14,141 nucleotides of DNA, taken from the NCBI GenBank assembly GCA_903909415.1, contig CAIVVS010000104.1, forward strand, positions 1 to 14,141, in the 5' to 3' direction. Positions 2 through 9,597 of the stretch are shown here, in pieces. Position numbers and translations under genes: made by a program. The DNA comes from an uncultured Pseudomonadota bacterium. GTDB lineage: Bacteria > Pseudomonadota > Gammaproteobacteria > Burkholderiales > SG8-39. Positions within the stretch are counted from its first letter, which is position 1; every line of letters starts with the position of its first letter. The notes beneath the pieces were generated by a model that saw only the letters and a list, made by a program, of their open reading frames with translations, was not told the origin of the DNA and made no database searches.

Positions 2-490
2 ATCCTCGCGGACAAGGACCCGGAGAAGCGCGGTCGCGAGATTGAGATAAAGCTGGTGGCGCGGTTGCGCAAGCACCTGGGCAATCCCAAGTTCACCGCG
101 TTGGGCGAGAGGCTGGAAAAGATCCGCGAGCGCCATGAACAGGGCGTGTTAACCAGCCTGCAGTTTCTCAAGGAAATCCTTGAGCTGGCGAAGGAAGTTG
201 TCGAGGCAGAGAATCAGTCAGACCCGGAAGAAGAACGCGACCGCGCCAAGGAGGCGCTGACCGAGCTGTTCAACCAGGCCAAGAACGGCAACACCCACAT
301 CATCGTCGAGCGCGTCGTCTCGGACATCGACGAGATCGTGAAGAAGGTCCGCTTCCCTGACTGGCAGCACACCTCTCAAGGCGAGCGTCTGGTGCAGAAG
401 GAGCTCAGGCGGACCTTGCTCAAGTACAAGCTGCACACCGACCAGGATCTGTTCGACAAGGCCTACGGGTATATCAGGCAGTACTACTGA
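2..490 (+). CDS. hsdR: Type I restriction enzyme R subunit, C-terminal part (partial)
   Basis: The frame is open from the first complete codon at the window edge to the TGA at 488-490, so this is the last 162 residues of a longer protein whose start lies outside. The end of the protein carries the arrangement typical of type I HsdR C-termini: a helical, charge-rich stretch, then DIDEIVKKVRFPDWQ, then a block reading ELRRTLLKYKLH and an aromatic terminus YGYIRQYY. In the family this helical domain contacts the methyltransferase core (HsdM/HsdS), while the nuclease and DEAD-box translocase domains lie further N-terminal, here outside the window. The full enzyme cuts unmodified DNA after ATP-driven translocation. 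The gene ends only six bases before the stop of the convergent gene at 497-1519. The hsdM and hsdS genes are not visible and would be expected upstream. Confidence 0.88.
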   Translation: MLADKDPEKRGREIEIKLVARLRKHLGNPKFTALGERLEKIRERHEQGVLTSLQFLKEILELAKEVVEAENQSDPEEERDRAKEALTELFNQAKNGNTHIIVERVVSDIDEIVKKVRFPDWQHTSQGERLVQKELRRTLLKYKLHTDQDLFDKAYGYIRQYY

Positions 491-496
491 ATACTC

Positions 497-1519
497 TCAC
501 CCTTGCCCGCGCCTTTTGTCGTCTCCGTCGCTGGTCTCGATCAATATGACCGATACGCCGCCTTCGGGGAGGTCGTTTGGCCCGTCTGGTGGGTTGTCAC
601 CGTTTTCGTTGTGAAAGCGGGAAAAAGTGTCTGGTCGGAAGTTGGTGTCGGACTTCCACGACCGGGAGGTTCCGTCCAGCCGTGCGAACAAATTTGGACC
701 GTTTAATCTACTTTTTCCGCTAATTGCCAGTTGGCGCTTTCGTGAAAACGTCTTCATCGCGGCGTATTCGAGGAGGTCCCAAATGACTGTTGTCCAACCG
801 TCAGATGCGGTTGCGGCGTGCTCTCCAAATTCCCTTCCGCTACGCGCCATCATTAGGTCGACGAGCTCGCTGGAAAGTGCATTCGAGATGTGCAGTGAGT
901 AATCCGTAGCAGCGACGCCCATGCAAAACGTGCCGGACATGCCAGAAATCCCGCTAGAGGGATCCTCTGGCGGGCGCGGGTCGATGAGCAAGTACTGTGC
1001 GCCCAGGTGTCGTTGCTTTGGCATGACGTCTCGAGATAAGCCGTTTAGACGTCCCGAGCCAACATAGGTGAATCTTGGCCAGCCCAAATAGAGTTTAAGT
1101 TGGTGGTATTCCGAATGCGGAACCACATGAGTCATTTCGCTGGACTTCTTTGCTTGTAGTAAAAGCGCCCGTCGCGTTGTTGGTCCGGTACTCGGCGAAT
1201 GAATGTGCGCGAATAGAACGTCGCCCAACTCGCAAGCCCCGCTGGTATGACGGACACGGGGTCGCCCGTGGCAAAACACGGAAGTTGTCGAAACTCGAAA
1301 CCCATGGGGAGCTAGAAAGAGTTGCAGCGTTTGCCCAATTTGCCTGGCCCCTTGCAACACGAGCATGGCAATGATGTCGGGTTCTTCAGGAGCGAATGCA
1401 GGACCACGCTTGGTGCGAGTGGTCATCCATGCCAATCTGGATGAGTACGCAATGCTGCTCTCAATACTGCTGATCAACGCCGCCCGGTTCGTTTGCAGAA
1501 TTTTGTCGGGGGTCAGCAT
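497..1519 (-). CDS. Hypothetical protein, possible PD-(D/E)xK nuclease
   Basis: This 340-residue protein belongs to no family I can name. The ATG at 1519 is the first good start. Base composition is visibly less GC-rich than in the neighbours and codon use is less biased to G/C third positions, which suggests recent transfer. An acidic patch followed by a hydrophobic helix (EEPDIIAMLVLQ, about residues 45-56) comes before a stretch with E97, D100 (CELGDVLF), then a hydrophobic strand ending LLLQAKK with Q122 and K124. The order Glu-Asp-(Gln)xLys resembles the core of Mrr-like and other restriction-endonuclease-fold proteins, in which Q can replace the second acidic residue. The C-terminal 60 residues are polar and likely disordered. 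It lies tail to tail with hsdR, six bases apart, which fits a defence island. The coding call is fairly safe; the nuclease idea is inference. Confidence 0.72.
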   Translation of the reverse strand: MLTPDKILQTNRAALISSIESSIAYSSRLAWMTTRTKRGPAFAPEEPDIIAMLVLQGARQIGQTLQLFLAPHGFRVSTTSVFCHGRPRVRHTSGACELGDVLFAHIHSPSTGPTTRRALLLQAKKSSEMTHVVPHSEYHQLKLYLGWPRFTYVGSGRLNGLSRDVMPKQRHLGAQYLLIDPRPPEDPSSGISGMSGTFCMGVAATDYSLHISNALSSELVDLMMARSGREFGEHAATASDGWTTVIWDLLEYAAMKTFSRKRQLAISGKSRLNGPNLFARLDGTSRSWKSDTNFRPDTFSRFHNENGDNPPDGPNDLPEGGVSVILIETSDGDDKRRGQG

Positions 1520-1560: not shown

Positions 1561-1806
1561 TTAGCTTGCTTCGCCAAACAACCCCAACTGACTAGCCCCA
1601 TGCGCCACCGCCTGCTCGACCATGCGCTTGGCCTCCTCCAGCGTCTTGCACGCGCCGCTGTGGGTGCCTGTCTGCCATTGGTACAGGCCGCCTGAGTCCT
1701 TGCCGCCCAGGGACACCCAGCCGATCTTCTCCTTGCCGCGCCAGTAGCCGTGGGTCTCGAAGCCGCGCTCCCAGAAGGGCTTGGGGGATTTTTTTCTCGT
1801 CGCCAT
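1561..1806 (-). CDS. Small conserved-looking hypothetical protein, 81 aa
   Basis: Unrecognised protein with a basic N-terminus (MATRKKSPK), then a glycine- and tryptophan-rich segment (W12, W22, W30, W44) that looks like a small antiparallel sheet, then one amphipathic helix around residues 55-68. There is no membrane segment or signal peptide. The G/C-rich third positions match the chromosome rather than the lower-GC gene downstream, so it probably belongs to the native backbone. The ATG at 1806 has no Shine-Dalgarno sequence, but TAGAAT (minus strand, 1818-1813) sits six bases before it and could be a -10 element giving a leaderless message. If the neighbouring modules are insertions, this gene was originally next to yqaA. 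Confidence 0.65.
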   Translation of the reverse strand: MATRKKSPKPFWERGFETHGYWRGKEKIGWVSLGGKDSGGLYQWQTGTHSGACKTLEEAKRMVEQAVAHGASQLGLFGEAS

Positions 1807-1936: not shown

Positions 1937-2079
1937 CTTCATGTCACCCCATGCACCACGACCGCATAGCGCATGAACCGCCCGATCGCCTGCCACAGCA
2001 GGCAGGGCAGCGCGCCCACCTTGAGCCAGCCCGCCGCCAGCACCAGGCCGTCACCGATGATCGGCACCCAGGCCATTAC
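1937..2079 (-). pseudogene. Detached 3' end of the yqaA-like gene (direct-repeat copy 1)
   Basis: This segment repeats 3394-3536 in the same orientation, with 139 of 143 positions identical by my alignment (differences at 1942, 2007, 2062 and 2077). It holds the last 46 codons and stop of the yqaA-like gene, plus two bases after the stop, but no 5' part, so it cannot be expressed as the protein. Read in the yqaA frame, three of the four differences are synonymous; the fourth changes Ser to Pro. That pattern points to a diverged allele of a working gene rather than to a decaying tandem duplicate. The copy and its partner bracket the HTH/nucleotidyltransferase module. It accounts for most of the gene-free stretch 1807-2139, together with the palindrome at 1866-1894 and the operator at 2110-2130. 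Confidence 0.88.
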
Positions 2080-2104
2080 CGGCGACCCGGCTGGAGAGAG
2101 CCTC

Positions 2105-2133
2105 TTGCGCTATTCGCGAATCGCGAATAGCAT
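2105..2133 (+). promoter_or_regulatory. Candidate promoter of the HTH/nucleotidyltransferase module
   Basis: TTGCGC (2105-2110) and TAGCAT (2128-2133) are separated by 17 bp, and six bases follow before the ATG at 2140. The -35 match is modest, the -10 match is 4 of 6, and there is no Shine-Dalgarno sequence. The palindrome at 2110-2130 fills the spacer, so a bound repressor would block polymerase. Confidence 0.4.
2110..2130. promoter_or_regulatory. Palindromic operator of the HTH/nucleotidyltransferase module
   Basis: The perfect 10-base arms CTATTCGCGA (2110-2119) and TCGCGAATAG (2121-2130) flank a single central A. The site ends nine bases before the ATG of the winged-HTH gene. That protein is the obvious candidate to bind it and repress its own operon, as antitoxins commonly do. 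Autoregulation is inferred from position. Confidence 0.65.
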
Positions 2134-2139
2134 ACGGCC

Positions 2140-2661
2140 ATGATCCTCAAACCCCAAGACGTCCTCATCCTCCTGAAGCTCGTCGCCCTGGGTGACGAAC
2201 CTTGGACTTACCAACGTCTGGCGGTGGAACTGTCCATGAGCCAGTCCGAGGCGCACGCGGGTGTGCGCCGGGCGGTCGCCGCGCGACTGATGACCGACAC
2301 CAACACCATGGATGGTCGTCCCGTTATGCCGGCATTGGAGGAGTTTCTGGTACACGGCGTGCGCTATGCCTATCCACCCGAGCGCGGGGCGCTTACGCGC
2401 GGCATGCCCACCGGCTACGCCGCCCCGCCGCTGGACACCCAGATCGTTCAGGCCGGGGATCCACCGCCTGTGTGGCCCTGGGCCGAGGGGACGGTGCGAG
2501 GCTATTCCCTTTCCCCCTTGTATCCGTCCGTGCCGGTGGCGGCGTCCCGTGATTCGCGGCTGTATGAGTTGCTTGCGCTGGTGGATGCCATCCGCGATGG
2601 CCGGGCGCGCGAGCGCAGCCTTGCGATCAAGGCGCTGGGCACGAAGCTGAAGTCCGCTTGA
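2140..2661 (+). CDS. Winged-HTH protein, putative antitoxin/repressor
   Basis: The 173-residue protein starts at the first ATG after the palindromic operator. Residues 3-50 form a MarR-like winged helix-turn-helix (DVLILLKLV, then TYQRLAVELSMSQSEAHAGVRRAVAARLM), in which the SMSQSEAHAGVRRA segment would be the recognition helix. A proline-rich linker in the middle (PPPVWPW) leads to a C-terminal helix around residues 140-173 (LYELLALVDAIRDGRARER). The gene shares one base with the next gene (TGATG, stop 2659-2661, start 2661), so the two are translationally coupled. In AbiE-type and related pairs, a winged-HTH antitoxin precedes a nucleotidyltransferase toxin, and this pair has that layout, although the protein is not clearly AbiEi itself. 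The likely role is DNA-binding autoregulator and possible neutraliser of its partner. Confidence 0.75.
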   Translation: MILKPQDVLILLKLVALGDEPWTYQRLAVELSMSQSEAHAGVRRAVAARLMTDTNTMDGRPVMPALEEFLVHGVRYAYPPERGALTRGMPTGYAAPPLDTQIVQAGDPPPVWPWAEGTVRGYSLSPLYPSVPVAASRDSRLYELLALVDAIRDGRARERSLAIKALGTKLKSA

Positions 2662-3359
2662 TGGACCAGAATGATCCGAACGTCGAACTCCTCACGCTGA
2701 TGGCGCAAGCGCTGGGGGAATTGCGGGATCAATTCGTGTTCGTAGGTGGGTGTGCAACTGCGTTGCTGGTTACCGACCCGGCTGCGCCACGCGCGCGTCC
2801 CACGCAGGACGTGGACGCCGTGGTCGGCGCCGTGTCCTTGCCGGACTACCACCGTATTGGCCAGGCATTGCGCGGTCGAGGTTTCACGCAAACCGTGGAG
2901 GGTGGCGAGCCACCGTATCGGTGGACGCACGCCGGCATGAAACTGGATGTCATGCCTGTTTCGGGCGCAGTGCTCGGGTTCACCAATCCCTGGTACGAGC
3001 CGGCCATGCGCGATGCCCGGCCCTTCGAACTGGCACCGGGTGTGGCAATCCGCCTCGTTACTGCACCGCATTTCATCGCAACCAAGCTGGTTGCATTCCA
3101 GGATCGCGGGTGTGGCGACTACCTTGAAAGTCACGACTTGGAAGACGTGCTTTCCGTCGTGGACGGGCGTCCCGAACTGGTCGACGAGTTCGCCCGGGCC
3201 GATCCCGATCTGCGTGCCTACGTCTCGGGCATATTCCAGGGGCTCCTCGCGAACGATGGATTCCTGAACGCGCTACCGGGCATCATCATCGGGGGGGGAC
3301 CCGCCGGACGTGTGCCCGTGGTCATCGCCCGCATGCAGGCAATTGCCACAGAGGGCTGA
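2661..3359 (+). CDS. Nucleotidyltransferase-fold protein, AbiEii-like putative toxin
   Basis: I start this 232-residue protein at the ATG at 2661, which overlaps the upstream stop; a TTG at 2658 is also in frame. The nucleotidyltransferase signature is clear: FVFVGGCATALL with the glycines at 29-30, then a strand holding D50 and D52 (TQDVDAVV), and a third acidic residue D96 in KLDVMP. Further on, a segment with K142 in IATKLVAFQDRG followed by HDLEDVL resembles the conserved basic and acidic block of AbiEii/DUF1814 enzymes. Toxins of this class transfer nucleotides onto tRNA or other acceptors and stop growth. With the upstream HTH gene it makes a compact two-gene module, bracketed by the 143-bp direct repeat. 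The fold is well supported; a toxin role comes from family and context. Confidence 0.78.
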   Translation: MDQNDPNVELLTLMAQALGELRDQFVFVGGCATALLVTDPAAPRARPTQDVDAVVGAVSLPDYHRIGQALRGRGFTQTVEGGEPPYRWTHAGMKLDVMPVSGAVLGFTNPWYEPAMRDARPFELAPGVAIRLVTAPHFIATKLVAFQDRGCGDYLESHDLEDVLSVVDGRPELVDEFARADPDLRAYVSGIFQGLLANDGFLNALPGIIIGGGPAGRVPVVIARMQAIATEG

Positions 3360-3393
3360 ATAGGTCGCCCGCCCCACGCCGCCAAGTCGGTCG

Positions 3394-3536
3394 CTTCAGG
3401 TCACCCCATGCACCACGACCGCATAGCGCATGAACCGCCCGATCGCCTGCCACAGCAGGCAGGACAGCGCGCCCACCTTGAGCCAGCCCGCCGCCAGCAC
3501 CAGGCCGTCACCGATGATTGGCACCCAGGCCATCAC
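3394..3536. repeat. 143-bp direct repeat, copy 2 (3' end of yqaA)
   Basis: This is the partner of 1937-2079, offset by 1457 bases and same orientation. It begins two bases beyond the yqaA stop codon and runs 46 codons into the gene. Identity falls away abruptly after 3536. The intact gene uses this copy. Confidence 0.88.
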
Positions 3537-3845
3537 GAGCGCCGGTGCGCCCAGCCTGGCGATGCGCTCGCGCGCCGCTTGCTGGCCCGCCGACCCGGCG
3601 CCGTCCCTGTGCCCGATACGCATGCCCAGCCAGCGGCCGATCGCCCAGGTGCTCATGCCGCCGGCGGTGTTGGCCACGGTCGCCACAAGCAGCGCCGCGC
3701 CCTGGCCGCCGGGGTGGGCCAGCACGTAGGCGGCCAGCGCCGCCTCGGAGGGCAGCGGCACCACGGTGGCCGCCAGGAACGCCGCCGCCCCCACCGACCA
3801 CAACCCGCCCTCCGCCCCCACCAACCAACCCGGAAACCCGTCCAT
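3396..3845 (-). CDS. yqaA: YqaA-like DedA/SNARE-associated family membrane protein
   Basis: I chose the ATG at 3845, giving 149 residues; the open frame continues to a TTG at 3881, but that stretch lies in the 51-bp repeat and is not protein-like. The protein matches the E. coli YqaA layout and length. An N-terminal membrane segment carries FLAATVVPLPSEAALAAYV. A second hydrophobic segment with GGMSTWAIGRWLG and a polar loop follow. The C-terminal part has WVPIIGDGLVLAAGWLK and the hallmark IGRFMRYAVVV. Members are inner-membrane proteins related to DedA flippases; YqaA itself has no settled function. It is flanked on both sides by modules bracketed by direct repeats. Its 3' end is duplicated at 1937-2079, and sequence just upstream of the ATG is duplicated at 5682-5732. 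Confidence 0.82.
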   Translation of the reverse strand: MDGFPGWLVGAEGGLWSVGAAAFLAATVVPLPSEAALAAYVLAHPGGQGAALLVATVANTAGGMSTWAIGRWLGMRIGHRDGAGSAGQQAARERIARLGAPALVMAWVPIIGDGLVLAAGWLKVGALSCLLWQAIGRFMRYAVVVHGVT

Positions 3846-3863: not shown

Positions 3864-3914
3864 GGAATTGCTGCAGTGCAAGCAAAAACCTCAATAAAAA
3901 CAGCGATATAGCTT
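3864..3914. repeat. 51-bp direct repeat flanking hipBA, left copy
   Basis: This segment is identical to 5682-5732 at 50 of 51 positions (A at 3896 against C at 5714), same orientation, offset 1818. It begins 18 bases upstream of the yqaA start codon, so it holds part of that gene's 5' region. Inside it is the near-palindrome AGCGATATAGCT (3902-3913). Confidence 0.9.
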
Positions 3915-3943
3915 TTTGGACGGCTGCCTAACGATGGCCAAGA

Positions 3944-4069: not shown

Positions 4070-4336
4070 ATGAAGATACCCATCGACAACGCGGCGGCCA
4101 TCGGCAAGGTGGTGCGCGCAAGCCGCAAGGCCCAAAGGATCAGGCAGGACGATGCCGCCGGCAGCATCGGCGTCAGCGAGAACTTCCTTGGTAAGGTCGA
4201 ACGCGGCAGCGGGGCTGTGCAATGGGCCAAGCTCTTCCAGGTCCTTGAAGGGCTTGGCATTCAGGTCATGGTGGATGTGCCCGAAGGCGTCGCCGCGTAT
4301 TTGAACGATCCTGGGAACGGCAGGGACAAGCCGTGA
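4070..4336 (+). CDS. hipB: HipB-like XRE-family antitoxin
   Basis: This 88-residue protein begins at the ATG next to operator O3; no Shine-Dalgarno sequence is present. Residues 11-66 form a Cro/C1-type helix-turn-helix, with IRQDDAAGSIGVSENFLGKVERG carrying the helix-turn-helix, LGKVERG being the usual end of the recognition helix, and a closing helix LFQVLEGLGIQVMV. In the family HipB binds DNA as a dimer, holds HipA inactive and represses its own operon; the three operators upstream fit that. The stop codon overlaps the start of hipA by four bases (GTGA at 4333-4336), giving coupled translation. The short C-terminal tail is polar, as in E. coli HipB, where it is a protease target. Confidence 0.88.
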   Translation: MKIPIDNAAAIGKVVRASRKAQRIRQDDAAGSIGVSENFLGKVERGSGAVQWAKLFQVLEGLGIQVMVDVPEGVAAYLNDPGNGRDKP

Positions 4337-5652
4337 GCAGCCGCTTCCTGCGTGCGTTCATCAACCGGGTTGAGGTCGGCAACCTGCAGGAGGTGGGCGG
4401 CCTCTGGAGCTTCGAGTACTCGGGAACCTGGCTGGCCGACCCCCGGCGCTTCGCACTCAGTCCCCACCTTCCGCTGAAGGCTGAGCGTTTGGTGGACGGC
4501 GCAAGCCAGCGGCCAGTGCAATGGTATTTCGACAACCTGCTGCCGGAAGAAGGGCAACGCGTCTTGCTCGCCGGTGACGCCAGGCTGGACAAGGCGGATG
4601 CCTTCGGGTTGCTCGCCTGGTACGGGGCGGAGTCGGCAGGGTCGTTGACCTTGTTGCTGCCGGACGCCGCGCCACAGGTCCCCGAGCCCCTGCGCGCCTT
4701 GCCGGACGATGCCTTGGAGCAACGCATCCGCCAGCTGCCCAAGGCACCGCTGACGCATGCGGCAATCAAGCGCATGTCCCTGGCCGGCGCGCAGCACAAG
4801 CTGGCGGTCGTCCTGCGGGACGGCGCGCTGTTTGAACCTGCTGGCGCGACGCCGTCGACCCATATCCTGAAGCCCGACCACCCGGATGCGGACTACCCCC
4901 ATTCGGTGATCAATGAATGGTTCGTGATGCGCCTGGCCGAACGGCTCGGCCTGGATGTGCCCGGCGTGCACCGGCGCTATGTCCCATCGCCGGTGTACGT
5001 GGTCGATCGCTTTGACCGGATTGAGGATGGCAGAGGCTGGCATCGGCGGCACGTGATCGACGCCTGCCAACTGCTGGGATTGGACCGCAACTTCAAGTAC
5101 AGCCAGGGCAGCATGGAAAGCCTGGCTGCATTGGCCAACGCTTGCCGCAGCTCGGCTGTGGCCCGGGCGCGGCTGTTTGGCTGGCTGGTGTTCAATGTGC
5201 TGGTTGGCAACGGCGACGCGCACCTGAAGAACCTGAGTTTTCTGGTTTCCCACGAAGGCGTCCAGCTGGCTCCGTTCTATGACCTGCTGAGCGTGGCCGC
5301 CTATGAATCCGCCGCGTTTGCCAAACGGGGTTGGCCGTCAGAGGCCCCATTACAAGCACGACTGGCCTGGCCTATCCTGGGTGCGCGCCGCTTCTCGGAC
5401 CTCCACCGCACGCTCATGCTGGAGGCTGGTGCGGCATTGAACCTGTCCAAGGGAACGGCTGAGCGCCTGCTGGAGAGCCTGCGCAGCCGCGTCTTCCACG
5501 AGGCCGAGGCACTGTACGCCGAGGTCGAAGCCGACAATGCCCGGCTCGCAGCTACGCGCGGCGAGCTCGCGGCAACGATGGCGGGGGAATCCCGTTGCCT
5601 GCGGGCCATCGTGCACACCGTCATCAAGGACATGGCCAGGCAAATCGCCTGA
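4333..5652 (+). CDS. hipA: HipA-like serine/threonine kinase toxin
   Basis: The protein is 439 residues, essentially the length of E. coli HipA, and begins with a GTG overlapping the hipB stop. The N-terminal couple-HipA domain (about residues 5-110) ends before the kinase part. Kinase landmarks are all present: the phosphate loop SLAGAQHK at 149-156, including the serine at the place autophosphorylated in E. coli HipA; the ATP-binding K180 in HILKP; E195 in INEWF; the catalytic loop NGDAHLKN at 293-300 with D295; and the metal-binding D317 in FYDLLS. HipA enzymes phosphorylate glutamyl-tRNA synthetase or other synthetases, halting translation and promoting persistence. No frameshift or missing residue is visible, so it should be active. 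The hipBA unit is bracketed by the 51-bp direct repeats. Confidence 0.93.
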   Translation: MSSRFLRAFINRVEVGNLQEVGGLWSFEYSGTWLADPRRFALSPHLPLKAERLVDGASQRPVQWYFDNLLPEEGQRVLLAGDARLDKADAFGLLAWYGAESAGSLTLLLPDAAPQVPEPLRALPDDALEQRIRQLPKAPLTHAAIKRMSLAGAQHKLAVVLRDGALFEPAGATPSTHILKPDHPDADYPHSVINEWFVMRLAERLGLDVPGVHRRYVPSPVYVVDRFDRIEDGRGWHRRHVIDACQLLGLDRNFKYSQGSMESLAALANACRSSAVARARLFGWLVFNVLVGNGDAHLKNLSFLVSHEGVQLAPFYDLLSVAAYESAAFAKRGWPSEAPLQARLAWPILGARRFSDLHRTLMLEAGAALNLSKGTAERLLESLRSRVFHEAEALYAEVEADNARLAATRGELAATMAGESRCLRAIVHTVIKDMARQIA

Positions 5653-5664
5653 GGAAGGCCGTCG

Positions 5665-5683
5665 CCGGGCCTGGATGGCCCGG
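5665..5683 (+). terminator. Candidate hairpin terminator after hipA
   Basis: A perfect 7-base stem, CCGGGCC (5665-5671) and GGCCCGG (5677-5683), encloses a 5-base loop 12 bases after the hipA stop. No T-run follows, so termination would be Rho-assisted or weak. The right arm runs two bases into the 51-bp repeat. Confidence 0.4.
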
Positions 5684-5732
5684 AATTGCTGCAGTGCAAG
5701 CAAAAACCTCAATCAAAACAGCGATATAGCTT
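5682..5732. repeat. 51-bp direct repeat flanking hipBA, right copy
   Basis: This is the partner of 3864-3914. The distance between left edges is 1818 bases and the pair encloses only operators, hipB, hipA and the hairpin. After 5732 the two copies diverge at once. Confidence 0.9.
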
Positions 5733-5856
5733 GTTTTCGGGCATTTTCTCGCGCTACCCTGTTCGCTGGCGCTCCCTCGCGGGCGCCCCAGCCCGGGGGC
5801 CAGGCCGGGCCGCAGCAGCAGGTCTCCAGACGATGACGACGAACGGAGGGCATGCC

Positions 5857-7139: not shown

Positions 7140-7150
7140 GCCTGGGCATC

Positions 7151-7300
7151 GTCATTCCCTCGAAAGCGGGAATCCAGCGACTATCGCCAACGACACTGGA
7201 TCCCCGCTTTCGCGGGGATGACATGACTGTGTAGTCGAGATATCCCGAATTTGACCCTCGCACCCCATGCCGTCATTCCCGCGAAAGCGGGAATCCAGCG
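7151..7300. repeat. Three-unit palindromic repeat block, left
   Basis: Three 29-base units built on ATTCCC-N8-GGGAAT occur here: 7151-7179 forward, 7194-7222 inverted and 7272-7300 forward. The inverted unit has the variant ATCCCC core. The core resembles the dRS3 type of dispersed repeat described in Neisseria and similar REP-like elements of other betaproteobacteria. The first two could pair to a long hairpin after the cupin gene and serve as its terminator. It fills the gap between the cupin gene and the Bug receptor gene. Confidence 0.88.
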
Positions 7301-7340
7301 GCGTTCCGAACACCCCGAACCCGTGACCAGGAGCCCCACC

Positions 7341-8318
7341 ATGAATCCGATGCGTTGGCTGATCTGCGCAGCACTGTCCCTCACCCCGGCCCTGGCGCAC
7401 GCCCAGGCCGACGCCTTCCCGTCGCGCCCGATCCGCTTCATGCTGCCCTTCGGACCGGGCGGCACGGCCGATGCGCTGGCGCGCGTGATCTCGCCGCGCC
7501 TCACCGAGATCTGGGGCCAGCAGATCGTGATCGAGAACCGTCCCGGCGGCGGCGGCATCCTCGGCATGGAGGCGGCGCGCACCATGCCCGCCGACGGCTA
7601 CAACTACGTGCTGGTGGGCAACAGCGCGGCGGCCTCCGAGGCCATCTACCCCAAGCTGAACTACGACTTCCGGCGCGACTTCCTGCCGGTGTCCATCTCC
7701 ATCTCCTCGCCGATGCTGATCGCGGTGAACGCCGCGTTCCCTGTGAACAACTTGCAGGCCATGGTGGTGGCGCTGCAGGCCGAGCCCAACAAGCGCAGCT
7801 ACGGCTCCTGCGGCCAGGGCAGCGCGCACCAGCTCGCCATGGAGCTGCTCAAGCACGAGCTCAAGTTCGGCCTGACCCACGTGCCGTACAAGGGCTGCGG
7901 CCCGGCGACGCTGGCGGTGGTGTCCGGGCAGATCGACGTGGTGGTCGGCGCCACCGCATCGCTGATGCCGCACGTGCGCGCCGGCAAGCTGCGCGCGATC
8001 GCCGTCACCTTCGACCGTCGCTCGCCGTCCAACCCCGACGTGCCCACCGTGGCCGAGTCGGGCGGGCCGCGCACCAAGTCGTTCTCGGTGGACAACTGGT
8101 ACGGCTTCATGGCCCCGGCCGCCACGCCGCGTGACATCGCTGCGCGCGTGGGCCGCGACATCAACCGCGTGCTCGCCATCCCCGAGGTGCGCGAGCGCCT
8201 CGCCCCGGCGGGCATCGACGTGCGCACCGGCGACGGCGCCGCGCTGCTGGAGGCCTACCTCGCCGACCTGCGCCAGTTCAAGGTCGCGGTGGACGCGGCG
8301 CAGATCAAGCCGGATTAG
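7341..8318 (+). CDS. Bug/TctC-type periplasmic substrate-binding receptor
   Basis: The ATG at 7341 follows AGGAG (7329-7333) at a good distance; the frame extends further up only through the repeat block. The 325-residue product begins with a signal peptide (hydrophobic 5-18, cleavage after AHA at 19-21). The mature protein opens with the Bug signature FPSRPIRFMLPFGPGGTADALAR and later has VIENRPGGGG, NKRSYGSCGQGSAHQLAMEL and THVPYKG, all in the family order and length. Bug receptors bind carboxylates or aromatic acids in the periplasm, some feeding tripartite TctAB transporters. No tctA or tctB is present in this window, as is usual for orphan Bug receptors of Burkholderiales. It is followed 67 bases later by the dihydroxyphthalate-decarboxylase-like gene in the same direction. 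Confidence 0.93.
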   Translation: MNPMRWLICAALSLTPALAHAQADAFPSRPIRFMLPFGPGGTADALARVISPRLTEIWGQQIVIENRPGGGGILGMEAARTMPADGYNYVLVGNSAAASEAIYPKLNYDFRRDFLPVSISISSPMLIAVNAAFPVNNLQAMVVALQAEPNKRSYGSCGQGSAHQLAMELLKHELKFGLTHVPYKGCGPATLAVVSGQIDVVVGATASLMPHVRAGKLRAIAVTFDRRSPSNPDVPTVAESGGPRTKSFSVDNWYGFMAPAATPRDIAARVGRDINRVLAIPEVRERLAPAGIDVRTGDGAALLEAYLADLRQFKVAVDAAQIKPD

Positions 8319-8385
8319 TTCCCGCCACACCCAGCCTGCGCGGGGCCGCCAGCTCCGCGCCGTCATCCCATCCCGGAGAAACACG

Positions 8386-9378
8386 ATGTCCGCACTACGC
8401 CTGACCATGGGCTGCACCAACTATGACCGTACCCGCGCGGTGTTCGATGGCCGCGCGCCCATCGAGGGCGTGGACCTGCTGTCGCTGGCTCTCGCCCCGG
8501 AGGAGGTGTTCCATCGCGCGTTCAAGTTCCGCGAGTTCGACATCACGGAACTGTCGCTGTCCAGCCACACGCTGATGACCGCGCGCGGGGACTCCGAGTA
8601 CATCGGCCTGCCGGTGATCCTGTCGCGCGTGTTCCGGCACTCGGGCATCTACATCCGCACCGACCGCGGCATCAAGAGCCCGGCAGACCTGAAGGGCCGG
8701 CGGGTGGGCGTGCCCGAGTACCAGATGACGGCCAATGTCTGGATACGCGGCATCCTGTCGGACGACTACGGCGTGCGTGCCCAGGACGTGCAGTGGCTGC
8801 GCGGCGGGCTGGAGGAGCCCGGGCGCGGCGAGCGCGCGCCGCTCACCCTGCCCGATGACATCAAGGTGGAGCAGGTGGCCGACGACAAGACCCTGTCGCA
8901 GATGCTGGCCGACGGCGAGATCGACGCGCTGATCACGGCGCGCGCGCCCACCTCGTTCCGTCGCGGCGCGCCCAACGTGGACCGCATGTTCCCGCAGTAC
9001 CGCAAGATCGAGGAGGAGTACTACCGCCGCACCAAGATCTTCCCGCCCATGCACATCATGGGCGTGCGCCGCAGCCTGGCCGAGCAGTACCCGTGGCTGC
9101 CGGTGAGCATCTACAAGAGCTTCCTCAAGGCGCGCGACATCGCGCTGGAGGAACTGGAGGAGATCGCCTACTACTTCGTGATGCTGCCGTGGGCGCTGGA
9201 CGACTACAAGAAGGCGCGCGAGGTGATGCCCGACGACTACTGGGCCTACGGCCTGGAACCCAACCGCCACACGCTGGAAACCTTCTGCCGCTTCCACCAC
9301 GAGCAGGGCATCTCCAAGCGCCTGGTCGCGCCGGAGGAGCTGTTCGCGGAGTCGACGCTGGAGCTCAGTAAAGTCTGA
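8386..9378 (+). CDS. 4,5-dihydroxyphthalate decarboxylase-like protein
   Basis: I start at the ATG at 8386 with GGAG at 8375-8378; upstream codons of the long frame overlap the Bug gene and are not protein-like. The 330-residue protein matches the Pht5/4,5-dihydroxyphthalate decarboxylase family from end to end: LRLTMGCTNYDRTRAVFDG, ITELSLSSH, IGLPVILSRVFRHSGIYIRTDRG and SPADLKGRRVGVPEYQMTANVWIRG. The fold is that of periplasmic binding proteins (NMT1/THI5-like), but no signal peptide is seen, so it should be cytosolic. True activity in most family members is unproven; many may bind or decarboxylate other ring acids. Pairing with a Bug receptor suggests uptake and first-step processing of an aromatic or heterocyclic acid. 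Confidence 0.87.
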   Translation: MSALRLTMGCTNYDRTRAVFDGRAPIEGVDLLSLALAPEEVFHRAFKFREFDITELSLSSHTLMTARGDSEYIGLPVILSRVFRHSGIYIRTDRGIKSPADLKGRRVGVPEYQMTANVWIRGILSDDYGVRAQDVQWLRGGLEEPGRGERAPLTLPDDIKVEQVADDKTLSQMLADGEIDALITARAPTSFRRGAPNVDRMFPQYRKIEEEYYRRTKIFPPMHIMGVRRSLAEQYPWLPVSIYKSFLKARDIALEELEEIAYYFVMLPWALDDYKKAREVMPDDYWAYGLEPNRHTLETFCRFHHEQGISKRLVAPEELFAESTLELSKV

Positions 9379-9386
9379 GGTCTGCC

Positions 9387-9541
9387 GTCATTCCCGCGAA
9401 GGCGGGAATCCAGCGACTTTCAGGGCGACAAACGACACTGGATCCCCGCTTTCGCGGGGATGACAGGTCTCTGTGGAAACACGTACCTCGTGTGATCCTC
9501 GCACCGCATGCTGTCATTCCCGCGAAAGCGGGAATCCAGCG
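9387..9541. repeat. Three-unit palindromic repeat block, right
   Basis: This block repeats the plan of 7151-7300: units at 9387-9415 (forward), 9436-9464 (inverted) and 9513-9541 (forward). The step from second to third unit is 77 bases against 78 in the left block. The spacer keeps CCTCGCACCGCATGC (9497-9511), one base different from the left block. It therefore looks like a second copy of one composite element. Confidence 0.88.
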
Positions 9542-9597
9542 TCGTTCCCATCCCCGCGAGGCGCGGGCCGCCAGGGGCACCAAACCCCCCGCTGCGC

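What the first reader, a model, noticed from the sequence alone, without database searches (positions are those of the whole stretch)
1937..3536. HTH/nucleotidyltransferase module bracketed by a 143-bp duplication of the yqaA 3' end
The last 46 codons and stop of the yqaA-like gene occur twice, at 1937-2079 and 3394-3536, same orientation, 139 of 143 identical, with the module between. Three of the four differences are silent in the yqaA frame, so the copies look like alleles that diverged while coding. This is the result expected if incoming DNA carrying its own yqaA 3' end plus the module recombined into the gene, restoring the reading frame and leaving the old end behind. There is no integrase in the 1.3 kb enclosed, so either homologous recombination or a helper enzyme in trans would be needed.
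Basis: partly seen in the sequence, partly recalled or inferred. Interest (0 to 1): 0.75.

Follow-up and report, generated by a model that had tools for sequence, protein, structure and literature searches.

The report
Defence gene pair between duplicated gene ends
A small two-gene module of a candidate phage-defence type sits between two copies of the tail of a neighbouring membrane-protein gene, and comparison with relatives suggests that the module came in on foreign DNA that re-ended the gene and left its old tail behind.

Summary
The repeat is real: 139 of 143 bp, same orientation, around 1.3 kb. The enclosed pair matches PADLOC's candidate defence system PDC-M21: an HTH-like protein and a MenT/AbiEii-like nucleotidyltransferase. 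The predicted empty site exists: in 27 relatives with both genes on one contig, yqaA lies beside the small gene at 1561-1806, and in 23 the gap is 22-282 bp. Each of 73 relative loci with a yqaA end (44 genomes) shows one end; the window shows two. The orphan end lies beside the old neighbour and keeps Pro, as two of the closest proteins do, where the intact gene has Ser. Some other M21 loci have related layouts: a Rieske gene end (L260), a remnant with an msrB end (L200), a tRNA-Cys end beside an integrase fragment (L273). Differences between coding copies favour third codon positions, 24 of 37. Bracketing is only modestly enriched: 7 of 66 loci against 11 of 335 gene-bounded controls, and not at 200 bp. 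Best reading: incoming DNA carried its own gene end. The process is of a known kind.

The parts
3396..3845 (-). intact yqaA-like gene (VTT/DedA family membrane protein, 149 aa from the ATG)
   Evidence: Pfam VTT_dom 1.5e-7, just under the curated cut-off; some homologues are named YqaA
3394..3536 (-). copy of the repeat that forms the end of the intact gene (last 46 codons, stop and 2 bp)
1937..2079 (-). orphan copy of the yqaA end, next to the old neighbour gene
   Evidence: position matches the single yqaA end in relatives
2080..2107 (.). junction between the orphan end and the module's upstream region
2108..2132 (.). palindrome CGCTATTCGCGAATCGCGAATAGCA just upstream of the first module gene, a possible operator
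   Evidence: inverted repeats with arms of at least 7 bp upstream in 48 of 64 M21A genes, window included; no shuffled control was run
2140..2661 (+). M21A: HTH-like protein of 173 aa, likely regulator or antitoxin
   Evidence: PADLOC PDC-M21A 9.6e-46; profile match to a transcriptional regulator, 2d1h, E 0.0035; confident model, but no PDB fold match at E 0.001
2661..3359 (+). M21B: nucleotidyltransferase of 232 aa, likely toxin or effector
   Evidence: PADLOC PDC-M21B 1.1e-61; Pfam AbiEii 1e-5; invariant G29, G30, D50, D52, D96 in 15 aligned sequences; fold nearest MenT1, 8an5, E 1.8e-7
1561..1806 (-). small conserved gene that follows yqaA in relatives
3864..3917 (.). sequence upstream of yqaA, proximal copy of the repeat around HipBA
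5682..5735 (.). distal copy of the same sequence, behind hipA
4070..4336 (+). hipB-like HTH gene
   Evidence: Pfam HTH_31 1.1e-5, just under cut-off
4333..5652 (+). hipA-like gene
   Evidence: Pfam HipA_C 2.6e-51

Best explanation
The M21 pair entered on incoming DNA that carried its own yqaA 3' end in front of it. The incoming gene end recombined with the resident yqaA, so the resident 5' part now reads into the incoming end. The other side of the incoming piece was joined inside the resident yqaA, which left the resident's own last 46 codons and stop behind the module, next to the old neighbour gene. Shown: the repeat, its edges, the single-ended order in relatives, and the orphan's position. 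Inferred: that the intact gene's end is the incoming one, and that joining was anchored by homology on one side and largely non-homologous on the other. The module itself most likely works as a toxin-antitoxin or abortive-infection pair: an HTH protein that controls its own promoter through the palindrome and restrains a nucleotidyltransferase. That function is inferred from family and fold only.
For: Single yqaA end and yqaA-g1561 adjacency in relatives, including G423, whose ilvA fragment (residues 8-302) is 85-87% identical. The orphan has Pro, as do P0122 and P0123; the intact gene has Ser, as does P0121. The outer repeat edge lies at the stop codon in the window and in the stop codon of a Rieske gene in another genome, L260, with the same relative orientation of gene, module and orphan; in L260 only about 10 bases remain beyond that edge before the contig ends. 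Third-position excess in copy differences over five loci, 24 of 37; binomial P 9e-5 against one third, 4e-4 without the window. One-sided homology that leaves displaced parts behind has been proposed for V. cholerae T6SS modules (PMC5361080, passages seen). The enclosed DNA is mostly the two genes.
Against: In the window alone only four sites differ, so three silent of four could be chance. Against a mixed null (orphan drift plus purifying selection on the intact gene, third-position fraction set by my own estimate at 0.47) the pooled bias has P 0.02, or 0.04 without the window; with only the Rieske and msrB cases against one third P is 0.014. Two of the five pooled repeats (hsdM, transposase) could be paralogues. 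No M21B match lay on the contig of a yqaA match in the 98 family genomes, of which 58 had yqaA, so no donor was seen. The model needs a donor in which M21 already sat behind yqaA, and leaves that first step unexplained. Silent-site polarity is not resolved.
Confidence: 0.55

Rival explanations
1. Site-specific integration at a gene 3' end: the repeats are attL and attR, the element supplied a replacement gene end, and the integrase was lost or acted in trans, as when e14 integrates in icd.
For: e14 leaves a 163-bp duplicated icd end and provides a new one (PMC6379469, passages seen), close to 143 bp here. One M21 module lies between copies of a tRNA-Cys 3' end with an integrase fragment beside it (L273; Pfam Phage_integrase 4.7e-4, below its cut-off). 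Outer edges at stop codons fit.
Against: No integrase in the 1.3 kb. The targets differ from locus to locus, so different integrases would be needed. In the four relatives with other cargo between yqaA and the small gene, the seven longer ORFs scanned gave CoA-transferase, TctC and enoyl-CoA hydratase families or nothing, and no integrase. The enclosed DNA is mostly the two genes, not an obvious decayed island.
Confidence: 0.25
2. Insertion with long target duplication, as described for restriction-modification genes: the module inserted and duplicated the resident gene end; the copies were identical at first and drifted apart.
For: The same pattern has been reported for restriction-modification genes with long and variable duplications (Nobusato 2000, not read; cited in PMC3031569 and PMC1643837, passages seen). 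Duplication lengths and targets vary here too.
Against: Drift in an orphan end should hit all codon positions alike; the pooled differences do not, though the support is moderate under the softer null. In the window three of four differences are silent.
Confidence: 0.15
3. Assembly or mixture artefact joining two strains' yqaA ends.
For: The window has no held whole genome, and the nearest copies of M21B (99%) and yqaA (100%) come from contigs of 929 and 766 bases.
Against: The inner junction shows no overlap that would drive a misjoin, and a like architecture occurs in an unrelated assembly, L260.
Confidence: 0.04

Closest known systems
Insertion with long target duplication of restriction-modification genes (Nobusato et al. 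2000; not read, seen only as cited in PMC3031569 and PMC1643837)
   Same: small self-preserving module bracketed by long direct copies of local sequence, variable targets
   Different: here the cargo is PDC-M21 and the copies look like diverged alleles rather than fresh duplicates
e14 integration in icd and other gene-end att sites (PMC6379469, passages)
   Same: gene end duplicated, element side restores the gene, old end left as a fragment of similar length
   Different: e14 is a prophage that integrates site-specifically; here no integrase lies inside and the insert is 1.3 kb
Homology-facilitated illegitimate recombination proposed for orphan immunity arrays in V. cholerae (PMC5361080, passages)
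   Same: anchor in a conserved part, displaced old 3' part left behind the new module
   Different: there the displaced genes are effectors and immunity genes of the same system; here the host gene is an unrelated membrane-protein gene and its end is nearly unchanged
PDC-M21 (PADLOC candidate) and AbiE/MenAT toxin-antitoxin pairs
   Same: HTH-like protein plus MenT/AbiEii-like nucleotidyltransferase in a two-gene operon
   Different: M21A matched no Pfam family, AbiEi included, and neither gene matched an NCBIfam model at E 0.01; function untested

Membership tests
PDC-M21 candidate defence system | adjacent PDC-M21A and PDC-M21B genes | tested here: met
   E 9.6e-46 and 1.1e-61; an M21A match accompanies M21B in 65 of 67 loci, window included
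PDC-M21 candidate defence system | protects against phage | not testable with these tools
   no experiment; a search for the term 'PDC-M21' in the held papers found none
AbiE type IV toxin-antitoxin | AbiEii/MenT-type nucleotidyltransferase with GG..DxD..D | tested here: met
   Pfam AbiEii 1e-5, MenT1 fold match, invariant residues; the motif itself is recalled
AbiE type IV toxin-antitoxin | AbiEi antitoxin partner | tested here: not met
   no Pfam family for M21A, no PDB fold match at E 0.001 or better
Integrase-driven island at a gene end (e14 type) | gene end duplicated, old end left at the far side | tested here: met
Integrase-driven island at a gene end (e14 type) | integrase gene in the element | tested here: not met
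   only the two M21 genes inside
Insertion with long target duplication | relatives lack insert and duplication, single target copy | tested here: met
   relatives are of the same family, not close strains
Insertion with long target duplication | copies derive from one resident sequence | tested here: inconclusive
   third-position bias speaks against it, moderate after a stricter null

The most novel reading that the evidence does not exclude
PDC-M21 pairs move as integrase-less units made of a captured host-gene end plus two genes, entering beside the same gene in a new host by its own homology and leaving the resident end behind, so that a defence pair uses ordinary host genes as landing pads.
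Probability: 0.12. Interest if true: 0.7.

Novelty: new member of a known kind. Interest (0 to 1): 0.45.

Why it matters
How small defence and toxin-antitoxin pairs move without any recombinase of their own is an old question. Orphan gene ends beside such modules record the target of the move, and codon-position bias in the copies offers a simple way to tell incoming alleles from fresh duplications on genome data.

Tried and rejected
Rejected: simple tandem duplication (M21 is single and lies between the copies; relatives have one end). Rejected: chance (E 5e-65). Tried: a general rule for HipBA; 0 of 20 fetched HipA loci of the family were bracketed, against 3 of 381 controls (the 20 were higher-scoring matches, from 38 of 98 genomes with any match, and some contigs were short), so the bracketed HipBA of the window is not shown to be typical. 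Tried: strong enrichment of repeats around M21; the crude count was 7 of 32 against 35 of 248, sliding intervals gave 8 of 67 against 36 of 2611 (Fisher P 6e-5 without the window), but gene-bounded controls reduced it to 7 of 66 against 11 of 335, P 0.017, at 400 bp to 3 of 66 against 5 of 384, P 0.10, and at 200 bp to 2 of 66 against 5 of 399, P 0.26. Tried: polarity of the silent differences; unresolved. Tried: the one genome-contig scan with yqaA gave one distant locus. Plasmid searches with M21B gave 114 records, all under 60% identity, and with yqaA 14 records, all under 60%. Tried: the empty site for the Rieske case; the family of G785 held 3 genomes, and the other two had matches of at most 39% identity. 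Reading L200 as a clean msrB duplication was given up: the repeat also holds the 5' end of another gene, of which three copies lie around an AbiE pair and the M21 pair, and the right-hand copy reaches the contig end, so an intact msrB was not seen.

Of 76 genomes with any M21B match (9 of 98, 35 of 399, 32 of 369), 66 loci were fetched; short fragments were mostly left out. Of the 8 bracketed loci, 3 (L273 tRNA, L277, L213) were left out of the codon-position count because the repeat is not, or not clearly, protein-coding.

Full report
The observation. The last 46 codons and stop of the yqaA-like gene occur at 3394-3536 (in the intact gene) and at 1937-2079 (alone), 139 of 143 bases identical. 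Identity stops two bases past the stop codon on the outer side and at an internal site on the inner side. Three of four differences are silent and the fourth is Ser in the intact gene and Pro in the orphan end.

The enclosed module. Between the copies lie 1314 bp, mostly taken by 2140-2661 and 2661-3359. The first matches PADLOC PDC-M21A (9.6e-46), the second PDC-M21B (1.1e-61) and, weakly, Pfam AbiEii. A predicted structure of M21B (mean pLDDT 89) is closest to the MenT1 toxin (E 1.8e-7), and the sequence profile finds the same PDB protein (E 0.00035). G29, G30, D50, D52 and D96 are invariant in 15 aligned relatives. M21A gives a confident model without a clear PDB match, and its profile finds a transcriptional regulator at E 0.0035. 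A palindrome stands just upstream of M21A in the window, and inverted repeats stand there in 48 of 64 cases, without a control. Function as a toxin-antitoxin or abortive-infection pair is inference.

The empty site. The window has no held genome. Its nearest sampled relatives are in the family of G330, 98 genomes, with ilvA up to 79% identical over nearly the full length and 87% over a fragment. There yqaA is followed by the small gene found at 1561-1806 in the window, and ilvA often lies on the other side. From the tables, 27 genomes have yqaA and that gene on one contig; in 23 the gap between the matches is 22-282 bp and in 4 it is 0.9-2.6 kb. The longer ORFs in those 4 gaps gave CoA-transferase, TctC and enoyl-CoA hydratase families or no match. 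In the window 130 bp separate that gene from the orphan end, which is in the empty-site range. A search for the yqaA end in the fetched loci found one in each of 73 loci from 44 genomes and two in the window. The four sites with other cargo have no second yqaA end, so they are not swap sites of the predicted kind.

Which end is old. Two of the closest proteins, P0122 and P0123 (78-79% identical), have Pro where the orphan has Pro and the intact gene Ser; P0121, identical to the window protein over 149 residues, has Ser. More distant relatives vary at that site (Ala 34, Pro 15, Ser 9 of 76 distinct matches) and do not settle the silent sites.

Other M21 loci. I fetched 66 further M21 loci, of 76 genomes with any match. 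Seven of the 66 are bracketed by direct repeats within 800 bp. L260: 186 bp, 97%, the last 62 codons of a Rieske ferredoxin gene, with the outer edge in the stop codon (only about 10 more bases are held there) and the same relative layout as in the window: the intact gene faces M21B, the orphan lies upstream of M21A; one change in the orphan turns a His of a recalled Rieske motif into Pro. L200: 186 bp, 85%, a remnant of one gene's 5' end plus the msrB 3' end, with the right-hand copy cut by the contig end; an AbiEi/AbiEii pair next to it is bracketed by a further copy of part of that remnant. L273: 54 bp, 98%, the 3' end of tRNA-Cys with a weak integrase match beside it; here the intact tRNA lies on the M21A side. 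L197: 45 bp, 82%, an hsdM 5' end. L256: 536 bp, 98.5%, part of a Y1 transposase gene. L277 and L213: repeats without a clear gene. Against gene-bounded control intervals in the same loci the enrichment is 7 of 66 to 11 of 335 (P 0.017), and it is not significant at 400 bp (3 of 66 to 5 of 384) or at 200 bp (2 of 66 to 5 of 399). The other 59 of 66 loci show no such repeat by this test.

Alleles or duplicates. In the five loci with protein-coding repeats, window included, 24 of 37 coding differences fall in third positions, 9 in first and 4 in second. Against one third, P is 9e-5, and 4e-4 without the window; with the Rieske and msrB cases alone it is 0.014. Against my estimate for a drifting orphan plus a constrained intact gene (0.47), P is 0.02, and 0.04 without the window. 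This favours copies that diverged as coding alleles before they met, that is, incoming DNA with its own gene end, but not beyond doubt.

Mechanism. I favour one-sided homologous joining with a non-homologous junction on the M21A side (0.55). A lost or trans-acting integrase (0.25) and insertion with long target duplication (0.15) remain possible; the tRNA-Cys case suggests that at least one M21 module travelled with an integrase. Known parallels are e14 in icd with a 163-bp end (PMC6379469, passages), long target duplications around restriction-modification genes (PMC3031569 and PMC1643837, passages; the original 2000 paper was not read), and displaced 3' parts explained by homology-facilitated illegitimate recombination in V. 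cholerae (PMC5361080, passages). Direct repeats flank 10-18% of small variable segments in the species studied in PMC2884548 (passages), so repeats alone are not rare.

Second bracket. HipBA at 4070-5652 is bracketed by copies of the sequence just upstream of yqaA (52 of 54 bases). yqaA is thus flanked on both sides by toxin-antitoxin-like pairs, each with a copied yqaA border. Among 20 other HipA loci none was bracketed.

Verdict. Real, correctly read in outline, and part of a minority pattern around PDC-M21. The process is of a known kind; the examples and the allele test are the added part.

Noticed in passing
window 3864-3917 and 5682-5735: HipBA is bracketed by a 54-bp direct repeat (52 of 54) taken from just upstream of yqaA; weaker similarity reaches into the first yqaA codons, and the distal copy reads SNSGP as P0121 does.
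   Followed up: partly
window 7147-7318 and 9383-9559: REP-like repeats (GTCATTCCCGCGAAAGCGGGAATCC) stand on both sides of a TctC gene and an NMT1-like gene (7341-9378), a third bracketed block.
   Followed up: no
L200 1393-6177: An AbiEi/AbiEii pair and an M21 pair stand in a row, separated and bracketed by copies of the same remnant sequence, which suggests stepwise accretion.
   Followed up: partly
window 2108-2132: Palindrome just before M21A; TATTCGCGAATA-type or TTTCGAAA-type palindromes precede a number of other M21A genes (no control).
   Followed up: partly
window 497-1519: 340-aa gene on the - strand without a match in Pfam, NCBIfam or PADLOC at the thresholds used.
   Followed up: no
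window 2-490: Gene end that resembles, from recall only, the C-terminal part of a type I restriction subunit R; Pfam gave no match.
   Followed up: no
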